Below, in pieces: positions 16,310 through 23,063 of a stretch of 64,000 nucleotides of DNA. Within the stretch, counting starts at the first letter, position 1. Every line of letters begins with the position of its first letter. The DNA lies in NCBI GenBank assembly GCA_025200525.1, contig CM045763.1:151906246-151970245 (forward strand). The letters run 5' to 3'. The notes beneath the pieces are model-generated. The model was not told the DNA's origin, made no database searches, and was given only the letters and a program-made list of their open reading frames with translations. The DNA comes from Camellia lanceoleosa (Eukaryota; Streptophyta; Magnoliopsida; Ericales; Theaceae). Position numbers and translations under genes: made by a program.

Positions 16310-17110
16310 TCATCTAAGGAGAGAAGCCCTTCAAAAAAACAAAGACGAACTCTGGAGGGAAATACTTGGCGAAACAGAAACGGAGGAACAATTCTTTGCT
16401 CTCTGTAAAGAAAGATGTCCCACCGATTACGTCACAAAATTCCCCCAATTAAAAACATTTTCCAGGGATCACTACAAAAGAGAGAGGCCCCCATATACTA
16501 GCCCTGTTAATTCATTTCCTTTTTTAAATGAAGAAGTAAAAAAATGGGCAGAAAATAATATTTTGTTTGTAAGTCGAGATTTCGTTAAGTACGAGTTATG
16601 TCAAAATTGTTGCCTCTCCGTTTGGAGGGAAGACGATTTCCTTAGATTAGGGATACACAAAAATAATATAATCAATTTATATACTGACGAAGAACTGTCC
16701 TCCTCCTCTGATAACAGGAACCAGAGCAGAGGCCCATCCGCCCAATCTCCCTCTACCTCGAAGGACCCTCAAGAACAGGCAAAACCGCCTGGGCCAGAAG
16801 TCTCGGACGACACAATTACTTTTCCAGCAGAATAAGCTTCAAAGACTACGACCAAGATGCCGTCTACAACGTCATAGACGACATCAAATACTCGATAGTA
16901 CCTACCGAATTAATAAAGAATTTAGTAGGATGCCAGAGAGATTTCCATGTATTCGTTAAGTTCCAACCATATCTCACTATTAGAGGAGGAATTCCTTGTA
17001 TTTTATTAACTAATGGGGACAGTAGTTGGTTAGATTCAATGTCCCCAAAAATGAGAGAATGGTTTGATGTTAATGTAACCACTGTCATGATTAATAAAAA
17101 ATTTTATTAA
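16310..17110 (+). pseudogene. Endogenous geminivirus Rep/RepA, copy A, 5'-truncated
   Basis: Replication initiator of a geminivirus; Rep nicks the viral origin and unwinds DNA as an SF3 helicase. The copy starts after the YxxK motif, so the endonuclease domain is absent. A one-base insertion in the A-run near 16332-16340 breaks the first frame. From 16478 the frame reads through to 16835, giving a RepA-type tail (DEELSSSSD) with no LxCxE motif. In another frame, 16718-17110 is an uninterrupted 131-codon segment with an intact Walker A GPSRTGKT (16763-16786), a Walker B-like VIDDIKY and a later ILLTNGDSSW motif. A GTAAGT donor at 16569 and an AG acceptor at 16716-16717 would join the two frames in phase, as in geminiviruses with spliced Rep. 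It converges on the MP gene at 17137. Confidence 0.9.
16569..16717 (+). other. Candidate Rep intron (copy A)
   Basis: Starts GTAAGTCG after codon ttt and ends ATAACAG before an open frame carrying the helicase motifs. Length 149 bases, phase 0. Without splicing, the frame continues as RepA to 16835. The donor is also present in copies B and C; in copy B the sequence is lost soon after the acceptor. Confidence 0.65.
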
Positions 17111-17136
17111 TTTTATTTATGAAACCACTTAAAGTT

Positions 17137-17997
17137 TTATTTACTTAGTACATTTCCCTTATCATCAACTGTTACATCTTGAGTCACATCACTATTTTTT
17201 ACACTGATGATTACATTTCGTAAAACATTAGAAAATTCTACTGGATCCATAAAAATTGATCCTCTACGATCAACTTCATCTTTGCTAACACCAACCTCTG
17301 AAATCGACGGGCCAGGATCAACATCACTGGTGTCATCACCACCTCTGCGTACATCCATCTCTGACAAACTCAGACGACCTCTGCGTTCATGAATAACTGA
17401 ACCACTTTCCCCAAAACCTACTAACAACAAATCTCTTCGCCTCTCCAGTAAACCAACAGACTTAGTCCGTGTCAAAATCGAAATGGCCTTCATTGGAGGA
17501 CAATGCCAGACATCAACATTATTATTAGTATATTTTTTAGATAACACAACAATAGAGGGGGCCCTCATTTGCGAATCTTCTGGCATGTCACTCGTACAAT
17601 ACTTCAGATACCCCTTCATTTTACAATACGTAACCCCTCTTTTAATATTGGAATTTTCAAGTCGATACTTCACCCATGGCACCTGTTTATCGTTAATTGA
17701 ACAATAACCATTCCCATAATAGACTAACTCGCATTGACAATCTCATCGAAAATAAACCACGCTCATTACCGCCTAACCTCCGATCATAAACATTTACTCG
17801 ACCAACCCACTAGCATTAAAAGCAAATGGGGAATATTTTATCAATATTTTATCAACCTTAAAACTTTTTTGTTTGTATCTTAACCTCAATTGAGAAAATA
17901 AATTAGGCAACGCAAGTTCAATACAACTGAAATCACTTGCTGAAACACCTTCAACAACCCCAGTTTTTATATCGTCCATCTCCATTAACCTGAACAT
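17137..17997 (-). pseudogene. Endogenous geminivirus movement protein (BC1-like), copy A
   Basis: Cell-to-cell movement protein of geminivirus type. The minus-strand reading begins MFRLMEMDD at 17997, and a DNASG-like centre (FNASGLV), a YDRRL..N block and a KMKGYLKY..SDM..D..MRAP region give the layout of the begomovirus DNA-B BC1 family. A deletion between about 17700 and 17800 shifts the frame, so the readable parts are 17794-17997 and 17137-17682. The C-terminal half is open to its stop at 17137. Only 26 bases separate it from the Rep stop on the other strand, the expected convergent 3' ends of a geminivirus. Upstream lies a CP tail in the same direction. Confidence 0.85.
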
Positions 17998-18026
17998 TAG
18001 AAATAAAAATACATCAAATTACAATT

Positions 18027-18100
18027 CTAAATAGTTTTAAAGTACATTTGACTCCTTGAAGTAATTTTGCATTCCTTTCCACTAACAGTAGCAGCCACTA
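18027..18100 (-). pseudogene. Geminivirus coat protein C-terminal tail, copy A
   Basis: Minus-strand reading ends KIT..RSQMYFKT then stop at 18027, matching the CP ends at 18851 and 21100. Homology stops abruptly at 18100, so only the last roughly 25 codons remain. The CP-to-MP spacing is like that in copy C. Confidence 0.75.
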
Positions 18101-18129
18101 TATAAAAGATTTGGAGTTATTTATTAAAA
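18101..18129. other. Rearrangement junction with Rep-like scrap
   Basis: Carries ATTTGGAGTTATTTA, which is also the point in the Rep N-terminus (20828-20842) where copy C is broken. It joins copy A (minus) to the CP of copy B (plus). Confidence 0.5.
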
Positions 18130-20839: not shown

Positions 20840-20994
20840 TTATATACTGACGAAGAACTGTCCTCCTCCTCTGATAACAGGAACCAGAGCAGAGGCCCAT
20901 CCGCCCAATCTCCCTCTACCTCGAAGGACCCTCAAGAACAGGCAAAACCGCCTGGGCCAGAAGCCTCGGACAACACAATTACTTCTCCGGCAGA
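20838..20994 (+). pseudogene. RepA tail and Walker A segment fused to Rep N-terminus
   Basis: One frame gives the RepA tail (YTDEELSSSSD to SPAE). The other frame still contains an intact Walker A GPSRTGKT. Cut at about 20994 and joined to a CP tail, so a 92-codon chimeric frame runs from 20753 to 21031. Confidence 0.8.
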
Positions 20995-21102
20995 AATGTT
21001 GGCAGCATTCAAAAGGGTGCCATATATTTAGTGGCTACTACTGTTAATGGAAAGGAATGCAAAATTACTTTAAGGAGTCAAATGTACTTTAAAATTGTTT
21101 AG
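20995..21102 (+). pseudogene. Coat protein C-terminal fragment, copy C
   Basis: 36 codons, open to TAG at 21100-21102. It reads NVGSIQKGAIYLVATTV at its start and MYFKIV at its end. This is the cleanest copy of the CP end and lets the decayed copies be aligned. MP follows after 29 bases. Confidence 0.8.
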
Positions 21103-21131
21103 AATTGTAATTTGATGTATTTTTATTTCTA

Positions 21132-22011
21132 ATGTTCAGGTTAATGGAGGTGGACGATATAAAAACTGGGGTTGTTGAAGGTGTTTCAGCAAGTGATTTT
21201 AGTTGTATTGAACTTGCGTTGCCTAATTTATTTTCTCAATTGAGGTTAAGATACAAACAAAAAAGTATTAAGGTTGATAAAATATTGATAAAATATTCCC
21301 TCCTTTGCGCACCCAATGCTAGTGGGTTGGTCAGAGTAAATGTTTATGATCGGAGGTTAGACGATAATGACAGTTTGCAAGCGTGGTTTATTTTCCCAGT
21401 GGATTGTCAATGCGAGTTAGTCTATTATGGGAATGGTTATTGTTCAATTAACGACAAACAGGTGCCATGGATGGTGAAGTATCGACTTGAAAATTCCAAT
21501 ATTAAAAGGGGGGTTACGTATTGTAAAATGAAGGGGTATCTGAAGTATTGTACGAGTGACATGCCAGAAGATTCGCAAATGAGGGCCCCCTCTATTGTTG
21601 TGTTATCTAAAAAATATACTAATGATAATGTTGATGTTTGGCATTGTCCTCCAACGAAGGCCATTCCGATTCTGACACGGACTAAGTTTGTTGGTTTACC
21701 GGAGAGGCGAAGAGATTTGTTGTTAGGAGGTTTTGGGGAAAGTGGTTTCAGTTATTCATGAACGCAGAGGTCGTCTGAGTTTGTCAGAGATGGATGTACG
21801 CAGAGGTGGTGATGACACCAGTGATGTTGATCCTGGTCCGTCGATTTCAGAGGTTGGTGTTAGCAAAGAGGAAGTTGATCGTAGAGGATCAGTTGTTATG
21901 GATCCAACAAAATTTTCTAATGTTTTACGAAATGTAATCATCAGTGTAAAAAATAGTGATGTGACTCAAGATGTAACAGTTGATGATAAGGGAAATGTAC
22001 TAAGTAAATAA
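21132..22011 (+). pseudogene. Geminivirus movement protein (BC1-like), copy C, near full length
   Basis: The best-preserved MP. ATG is at 21132, with a second ATG in frame at 21144. The frame is open for about 205 codons through the ASGLV, YDRRLDDNDSLQAW, VPWMVKYRLE, KMKGYLKYCTSDMP and RAPSIVVLSKKY blocks. A single extra T near 21746-21748 shifts the frame, and the rest is open from 21733 to the stop at 22009-22011, with a Ser/Asp/Gly-rich tail ending GNVLSK. Total about 290 residues, close to BC1-type proteins. A CP tail lies upstream and Rep converges from the other strand 27 bases beyond. Confidence 0.88.
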
Positions 22012-22037
22012 AACTTTGAGTGGTTTTATAAATAAAA

Positions 22038-23063
22038 TTAATAAAATTTTTCATTAATGATGACAGTGGTTACATTAACATCAAACCATTCTCTCATTTT
22101 TGGGGACATTGCATCTAACCAACCATCATTCCCCATTTGTTAATAAAATACAAGGAATTCCTCCTCTAATAGTGAGATCTGGTTGGAACTTAACAAATAC
22201 ATGGAAATCTCTCTGGCATCCTACTAAATTCTTCATTAATTCGGTAAGGACTATCGAGTATTTGATGTCGTCTATGACGTTGTAGACGGCGTCTTAGTCG
22301 TAGTCCTTGAAGCTTATTCTGCCGGAGAAGTAATTGTGTCGTCCCAGGCTTCTGGCCCCGGCGGCTTTGCCTCATCTTGGGGGTCCTTCAAGGTAGAGGG
22401 AGATTGGGCGGATGGGCCTCTGCTCTGGTTCATGTTATCAGAGGAGGAGGACAGTTCTTCGTCAGTATATAAATTATTGATTTTGTTTTTGTGTATCCCT
22501 AATCTAAGGAAGTCGTCTTCCCTCCAAACGGAGAGGCAACAATTTTGACATAACTCGTACTTAACAAAATCTCGACTTACAAACAAAATATTATTTTCTG
22601 CCCATTTTTTTACTTCTTCATTTAAAAGGAAATGAATTAAAAGGGCTAGTATATGGGGGGCCTCTCTCTTTTGTAGTGATCCCTGGAAAATGTTTTTAAT
22701 TGGGGAAATTTTGTGACGTAATCGGTGGGACATCTTTCTTTACAGAGAGCAAAGAATTGTTCCTCCGTTTCTGCTTCGCCAAGTATTCCCCTCCAGAGTT
22801 CGTCTTTGTTTTTCGAAGGACTTCTCTCCTTAGATGAAAATTCTCCCCATTCGACGAACTCACCCTCTTTCTGTATGTACTGTCGACTTGCTGTTGGCGA
22901 GTGGAGTTTTTCTATATTCGGATGGTAGATCCTTCCATTGGTTCCATTGAGATCGAAAAATCTCGAGTTAGAAGTTTGGATCTTCTTCGTGCATTGAACC
23001 ATGGCATAAAGGTAAGGGTTTCTATCTTCATGGAGCTCCTTTGCGACAAGTATGTAGTATGGC
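22038..23063 (-). pseudogene. Endogenous geminivirus Rep/RepA, copy C, minus strand
   Basis: From about 23063 leftward. Motif II reads YLY (23007-23015) instead of HLH, and motif III YIQK (22868-22879) is intact. The same six-C run as copy B breaks the frame near 22656. The RepA tail is open (22314-22733). The helicase frame has a stop inside Walker A (22372-22374), another stop at 22294-22296, and a frameshift near 22105-22130, so it is dead. The N-terminus with motif I is missing. It converges on MP copy C exactly as copy A does on its MP. Confidence 0.9.

What the first reader, a model, noticed from the sequence alone, without database searches (positions are those of the whole stretch)
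16310..23063. Endogenous geminivirus cluster with citlodavirus-like gene set
Seen: Rep with FLTYP, HLH, YIQK and GPSRTGKT motifs, an intron joining Rep parts, a BC1-like MP directly after a CP tail, and a stem-loop origin. Known: a BC1-like MP on the same molecule as CP, with spliced Rep, is a feature of the citlodaviruses of woody plants; bipartite begomoviruses carry BC1 on DNA-B and have unspliced Rep. Inference: an ancient relative of citlodaviruses integrated into this plant genome.
Basis: partly seen in the sequence, partly recalled or inferred. Interest (0 to 1): 0.95.

Follow-up and report, generated by a model that had tools for sequence, protein, structure and literature searches.

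The report
Broken ancient geminivirus copies in plant
A stretch of plant chromosome holds several broken, shuffled and partly back-to-back copies of an old plant virus related to citlodaviruses; this class of viral fossil is already described, above all from tea and its relatives, and what remains here is a dead relic whose inverted copies might at most feed the plant's own RNA silencing.

Summary
Window 16311-23131 is a rearranged endogenous geminivirus cluster: three movement-protein (MP) copies and a scrap, four Rep remnants, one broken coat-protein-like gene plus two tails, and one stem-loop origin with TAATATTAC. Twice MP and Rep meet tail to tail, 26 nt apart, and a CP-like end precedes MP by 41 nt: a one-molecule layout as in citlodaviruses, not begomovirus DNA-B. 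Rep splicing is only predicted, CP identity is weak, and no tree against named genera could be built, so genus membership is untested. MP relatives are annotated in Camellia sinensis and Rhododendron molle; the host itself is not proven. Copies differ by 2-5%. The published tea 'Clade 3' endogenous geminiviruses match this content and are sister to citlodaviruses (PMC7758297). So: a real, decayed viral fossil, a new locus of a known kind. Its inverted arms (0.8 and 1.8 kb, about 96% alike) could form hairpin RNA; expression is untested.

The parts
16065..16310 (.). left host flank with short tandem repeats; shares an 11-residue reading with C. sinensis protein P0013, which also carries MP remains
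   Evidence: E 0.004 within the window only
16311..17110 (+). Rep remnant D: RepA from about residue 117 on to its stop, and the overlapping C2 frame with Walker A, Walker B, motif C and arginine finger to the Rep stop; N-terminal part missing
16569..16729 (+). predicted Rep intron in D: donor GTAAGT at 16569, in-phase acceptors ending at 16717 (149 nt) or 16729 (161 nt)
   Evidence: phase by arithmetic; no RNA evidence
17137..17985 (-). MP copy A, frameshifted, with stops; tail to tail with Rep D, 26 nt between the stop codons
18027..18104 (-). CP-like tail upstream of MP A
   Evidence: (I5, I7)
18099..18105 (+). TATA-like box before the CP-like gene
   Evidence: sequence
18130..18853 (+). 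CP-like gene, broken by stops and frameshifts
   Evidence: Pfam support only for the homologous tail in copy C, E 0.092
18895..19641 (+). MP copy B, frameshifted, cut near residue 247; starts 41 nt after the CP-like stop
19638..20306 (+). Rep remnant E (motif II HLHA, YIQK, GRS-type RFFDL, donor GTAAGT at 20126); joined to MP B by an inversion joint with 4 nt shared
20304..20362 (-). scrap of MP
20362..20752 (.). intergenic region with origin: stem 20627-20637/20651-20661, TAATATTAC on minus 20638-20646, TCACACCA three times and TGGTGTGA once
20753..20821 (+). Rep remnant G, N-terminal 23 residues with FLTYPQ
20838..20995 (+). Rep remnant G, second piece with Walker A; a 16-nt match to the CP leader bridges the deletion
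20996..21102 (+). CP-like tail upstream of MP C
21144..22011 (+). MP copy C, the best preserved, one frameshift near 21733-21746
22038..23131 (-). Rep remnant F, frameshifted; motif II degenerate (YLYA); tail to tail with MP C, 26 nt between the stop codons

Best explanation
A decayed endogenous geminivirus locus in a plant nuclear genome, most likely of Camellia or another member of the order Ericales. A monopartite, citlodavirus-like virus (CP-like gene, then BC1-type MP, on one strand; RepA/Rep on the other, meeting MP tail to tail; TAATATTAC stem-loop) left DNA that ended up in a chromosome as partial copies in both orientations, most likely by end joining with short overlaps. It then drifted: every gene is cut, frameshifted or stopped, and no complete viral protein is encoded. 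Shown: gene content, order, decay, joints, copy identity. Inferred: route of entry, host, a single founder.
For: Pfam and translated matches; tail-to-tail MP and Rep in 2 of 2 places where both ends are kept, and MP running into Rep antisense in C. sinensis proteins P0013 and P0014; origin stem-loop; stops and frameshifts; retroelements in the same gap-free window; copies 95.0-98.0% alike with MP states at residues 134, 214, 276 and 284 shared by the copies that cover them and absent from the other rows covering them; joints with 3-6 nt overlap; grouping with C. sinensis MP remains, support 98/94; published match in content (PMC7758297).
Against: The CP-like gene is below Pfam's cut-off. No named geminivirus sequence could be compared apart from solved Rep structures. 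The MP frame (868 nt in copy C) is under the 888-921 nt published for citlodaviruses. A virus-like 3,688-nt contig with a 97% MP exists, so a free relative cannot be excluded as the source of similar sequence elsewhere.
Confidence: 0.87

Rival explanations
1. The locus works as a natural hairpin: inverted MP and Rep copies are transcribed together, the RNA folds back and Dicer-like enzymes cut it into siRNAs against related viruses. (This is compatible with the fossil origin; it rivals the view that the locus does nothing.)
For: Inverted arms 17257-18084 and 18796-19640 (827 aligned, 95.9%, 711-nt spacer, 16 perfect runs of 21 nt or more) and 16310-18104 and 21025-22837 (1792 aligned, 95.5%, 28 such runs). 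Precedents: rearranged inverted caulimovirid loci with 22-nt siRNAs in tomato (PMC10377300); siRNAs from yam geminivirus elements (PMC5014472).
Against: No RNA or small-RNA data here. Tea EGVs are highly methylated and most are possibly silent (PMC7758297). Inverted copies arise without selection. pN/pS over six pairs (0.55-1.75, 5-11 synonymous changes each) is uninformative.
Confidence: 0.12
2. The MP pieces come from a DNA-B and the Rep pieces from a DNA-A of a bipartite begomovirus-like virus, brought together by integration.
For: The MP matches the BC1 family; PF00844, the weak hit of the CP-like tail, also covers the DNA-B protein BR1; Sharma et al. saw potential nuclear shuttle proteins near Rep in C. 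sinensis; the Rep piece scores higher against the solved begomovirus-type Rep 1l2m than against 6q1m (63.5 and 47.3 bits; virus names of these entries recalled).
Against: MP and Rep ends lie 26 nt apart in both copies that keep them, and the CP-like end lies 41 nt before MP in the same orientation in B and C; on DNA-B the two genes converge and Rep is absent (recalled). The MP-Rep join recurs in P0013 and P0014.
Confidence: 0.04
3. A free virus or contaminant wrongly joined into a plant assembly.
For: Multi-copy inserts are hard to assemble; virus-sized contigs of close relatives exist.
Against: Pseudogene decay in every copy, rearranged order, 2-5% copy divergence, host repeats on both sides.
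Confidence: 0.02

Closest known systems
Camellia 'Clade 3' endogenous geminivirus elements (Sharma et al. 2020, PMC7758297)
   Same: Geminiviral CP, BC1-type MP, RepA/Rep and TAATATTAC; multi-copy, clustered, mostly truncated; Rep lineage sister to CCDaV, MMDaV and CaCDaV; the window's MP groups with C. sinensis MP remains
Genus Citlodavirus (CCDaV, CaCDaV, passion fruit chlorotic mottle virus, apiscitlodal virus; PMC11053556, PMC5923463)
   Same: Monopartite layout with BC1-type MP on the molecule of Rep, RepA/Rep with splice signals, TAATATTAC, CP-like gene of similar size (724 nt against 744)
   Different: Endogenous and dead; MP a little shorter (868 nt against 888-921); predicted intron 149 or 161 nt against 99 nt in apiscitlodal virus; CP not recognisably citlodaviral; V2 and V3 not looked for
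Endogenous geminiviral locus of macadamia (PMC8626973)
   Same: Partly duplicated broken copies, with two AV1 copies in opposite directions and a TAATATTAC origin
   Different: Begomovirus-like gene set without BC1
Inverted-repeat endogenous caulimovirid loci of tomato (review PMC10377300)
   Same: Rearranged endogenous virus with inverted copies able to form hairpins
   Different: Other virus family; small RNAs shown there, untested here

Membership tests
Geminiviridae | Rep HUH catalytic and central domains | tested here: met
   PF00799 E 8.3e-27 and 3.4e-24, PF08283 E 3.7e-12; solved geminivirus-type Reps E 2.4e-17 and weaker
Geminiviridae | TAATATTAC in the loop of a GC-rich stem | tested here: met
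   11-bp perfect stem, 13-nt loop
Geminiviridae | coat protein | tested here: inconclusive
   PF00844 E 0.092 for the tail in copy C and 0.043 for Rhododendron P0016, both under the cut-off; three other CP frames gave no hit to PF00844; no solved structure for one frame
Citlodavirus | BC1-type MP on the same molecule as CP and Rep | tested here: met
   PF00845 in three copies; MP-Rep tail to tail twice and in P0013, P0014; CP-like end 41 nt before MP twice
Citlodavirus | spliced rep | tested here: inconclusive
   GTAAGT donor in 3 of 3 copies examined and in-phase acceptors in D; no RNA
Citlodavirus | mp gene of 888-921 nt | tested here: not met
   868 nt in copy C; 286-289 codons in P0001-P0004; range. 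A usual size rather than a formal criterion
Citlodavirus | genome-wide identity and tree placement with the genus | not testable with these tools
   no named citlodavirus sequence obtainable; genome reassembly left out
Citlodavirus | V2 and V3 genes | not tested
   -
Camellia Clade 3 EGV | Rep, BC1-type MP, CP and TAATATTAC together at an endogenous locus | tested here: met
   CP part weak
Camellia Clade 3 EGV | Ericales host; Rep within the clade | tested here: inconclusive
   C. sinensis Rep P0019 95% over 60% of the query; MP tree 98/94 with C. sinensis rows, Rep tree unresolved; host unnamed
Begomovirus DNA-B | BC1 on a molecule without Rep | tested here: not met
   MP contiguous with Rep in two copies and in two C. 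sinensis proteins

The most novel reading that the evidence does not exclude
The locus is a natural antiviral hairpin: inverted MP and Rep copies are transcribed, form long double-stranded RNA and feed 21-22-nt siRNAs against a still circulating, almost identical virus (the 97% MP on contigs of up to 3,688 nt). It would be a geminivirus counterpart of the inverted-repeat caulimovirid loci of tomato.
Probability: 0.1. Interest if true: 0.65.

Novelty: new member of a known kind. Interest (0 to 1): 0.3.

Why it matters
It describes, base by base, one locus of a lineage with a begomovirus-type movement protein on the same molecule as Rep, the layout proposed as a step between monopartite and bipartite geminiviruses (PMC5923463). 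It offers a simple test of whether inverted geminiviral relics feed RNA silencing, and it warns that PCR or read mapping for a free relative in such plants may pick up chromosomal copies.

Tried and rejected
Tried without result: 4 scans of viral contigs for MP and Rep relatives (3, 4, 73 and 18 pattern stretches, 0 confirmed). Structure route to named relatives: MP model mean pLDDT 35.2, Rep model 39.1, both unusable; the viral fold library never took a job, so no fold match is claimed. Own-genome search asked 9 times, never answered. Host identification by a Copia protein (878 matches, 120 listed) gave Actinidia at 56% over 89% of the query first and Camellia at 50-76% over 21-73%, beside many other plants: no answer. 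CP by Pfam and one solved-structure search was weak or empty. Eight of ten other frames of the window gave no Pfam family.

Considered and rejected: DNA-B origin of the MP; the second TAATATTAC at 4161, which has no stem (z 0.30). Left open: methylation decay. Transitions at CG plus CHG sites are 9 of 19, 10 of 24 and 6 of 10 in the MP pairs (background 28-29%) but 2 of 13, 7 of 24 and 7 of 22 in the Rep pairs (background 28-31%). Selection: pN/pS 1.17, 1.75, 0.55 (MP) and 0.83, 0.55, 0.55 (Rep) with few changes; values with MP copy A are inflated by its frameshifted stretch. No conclusion drawn.

Papers, and what I saw: PMC7758297 (abstract, passages, methods 2.6, Results parts 1-3 of 4), PMC11053556 (passages, section 3.2), PMC5923463 (passages, section 3.1), PMC8626973 (abstract, one Results section), PMC10377300, PMC5014472 and PMC7243478 (passages). 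That I found no description of inverted-repeat endogenous geminiviruses beyond the opposed AV1 copies of macadamia rests on the listings of searches (most showed 10-20 of the papers found) of an open-licence library, and on the parts read.
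Full report
WHAT IS THERE. Between 16311 and 23131 the window is made of geminivirus-derived pieces and their joints. Self-comparison shows three MP copies and four Rep remnants, in both orientations, with inverted pairs up to 1.8 kb. Pfam names the parts: Gemini_AL1 (E 8.3e-27, 3.4e-24), Gemini_AL1_M (3.7e-12), Gemini_BL1 (1.6e-40, 1.3e-25, 1e-19); of 10 frames submitted 4 gave no family. Translated search with five database relatives gives the map, listed under parts.

LAYOUT. The stop codons of Rep D (+) and MP A (-) are 26 nt apart, and so are those of MP C (+) and Rep F (-) (sequence). 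In C. sinensis proteins P0013 and P0014 the MP reading likewise runs on into Rep antisense. A CP-like end stands 41 nt before MP in copies B and C. So the CP-like gene, MP and Rep belonged to one molecule: CP-like gene and MP on one strand, RepA/Rep on the other. The intergenic region keeps an 11-bp perfect stem with a 13-nt loop that contains TAATATTAC on the strand opposite to Rep G, and three direct copies of TCACACCA and one inverted, which look like Rep-binding repeats (inference). The CP-like gene is 724 nt long; Pfam's coat family, which also covers BR1, gives only E 0.092 for its tail, so the name rests mainly on size, place and the published tea elements.

DECAY. No complete gene remains. 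MP A has stops and a frameshifted stretch, MP B is frameshifted and cut near residue 247, MP C has one frameshift. Motif I of Rep is only in G, an intact motif II only in E; Walker A is in D and G; Walker B, motif C and arginine finger are in D and F (motif names from PMC11053556). The CP-like stretch has stops in all three frames. Copies are 95.0-98.0% identical over six pairs. With a recalled neutral rate near 6.5e-9 per site and year the copies parted some 1.5-4 million years ago; this is rough.

JOINTS. The MP B/Rep E joint is an inversion joint with 4 nt shared (MP match to 19641; Rep match from 19638). The next joint shares 3 nt (read from the sequence). In Rep G a deletion is bridged by a 16-nt match to the CP leader (20828 and 18109) that overlaps the following Rep piece by 6 nt. 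This looks like end joining with short overlaps and filler (inference).

RELATIVES. 16 proteins match the MP piece and 11 a Rep piece. The nearest MP, P0001 (97% over 92% of the query, 286 residues), comes from unnamed contigs of up to 3,688 nt. P0003 (MP, 81%) and P0017 (RepA, 82%) both list a longest contig of 3,625 nt, perhaps the same one. Named hits are Camellia sinensis (MP: P0005, P0013, P0014, P0015; Rep: P0019) and one Rhododendron molle protein, P0016, whose MP residues follow a CP-like stretch. A 15-row tree puts the three window MPs with P0001, P0005, P0009, P0010 and P0012-P0015 (98/94), apart from P0002-P0004 and P0007; inside that group the forks are open. In the 12-row Rep tree the only well supported branch joins P0018 and P0023 and does not bear on the window. 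The window's MP copies share states at residues 134, 214, 276 and 284 (copy B covers the first two) that no other row covering them has; a fifth, at 252, is also in P0002 and P0003 and so says nothing. This suggests one founder for the cluster.

HOST. The window has no N and holds a Copia-type element (RVT_2, E 6.3e-26; direct LTR-like repeats near 36.7 and 42.0 kb) and a second retroelement (RNase H, E 7.5e-22) at 60.8-61.5 kb, so this is plant nuclear DNA. Camellia is the best guess: MP and Rep kin, and an 11-residue run in the left flank shared with P0013. It is not proven: the Copia protein is not close to any listed Camellia protein.

KNOWN OR NEW. Sharma et al. 2020 (PMC7758297) report 967 and 918 Rep loci in two tea genomes, in hotspots, and a Clade 3 lineage with CP, MP, RepA/RepB and TAATATTAC, sister to CCDaV, MMDaV and CaCDaV, with CP, BC1 and C1:C2 in Camellia transcripts. 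The window fits this. Citlodavirus features come from PMC11053556 and PMC5923463. It meets the one-molecule layout and the origin, leaves splicing and CP open, and falls just short of the usual mp size. Hence: relative of citlodaviruses, a new locus of a known kind; not filed as a member of the genus.

WHAT IT DOES. Most likely nothing as a virus. The one testable role is in silencing: arms of 827 and 1792 aligned bases, about 96% alike, with 16 and 28 perfect runs of at least 21 nt, resemble the inverted caulimovirid loci with 22-nt siRNAs in tomato (PMC10377300). Against it: tea elements are highly methylated and most are possibly silent, and no expression data were available here.

Noticed in passing
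13999-15072 and 15395-15823: Two tandem arrays (93-bp unit, 11.6 copies; 98-bp unit, 4.5 copies) stand just left of the viral cluster.
   Followed up: no
36667-42078: Decayed Copia-type retroelement with direct LTR-like repeats 89-95% alike.
   Followed up: partly
60775-61545: Second retroelement, RNase H domains on the minus strand.
   Followed up: no
44635-45090: Two neighbouring minisatellites with 30-bp and 27-bp units.
   Followed up: no
4161-4169: A second TAATATTAC, minus strand, without a stem: chance.
   Followed up: yes
database protein P0001: An unbroken MP 97% identical to the window's piece sits on unnamed contigs of up to 3,688 nt, the size of a citlodavirus genome: a free virus or a short-read merger of chromosomal copies.
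   Followed up: partly
database protein P0016: An annotated Rhododendron molle protein joins a CP-like stretch to MP residues, so kin of this virus also reached Ericaceae.
   Followed up: partly
database proteins P0013, P0014, P0015: Annotated C. sinensis gene models that include MP remains fused to other sequence; probably annotation of viral relics as genes.
   Followed up: partly
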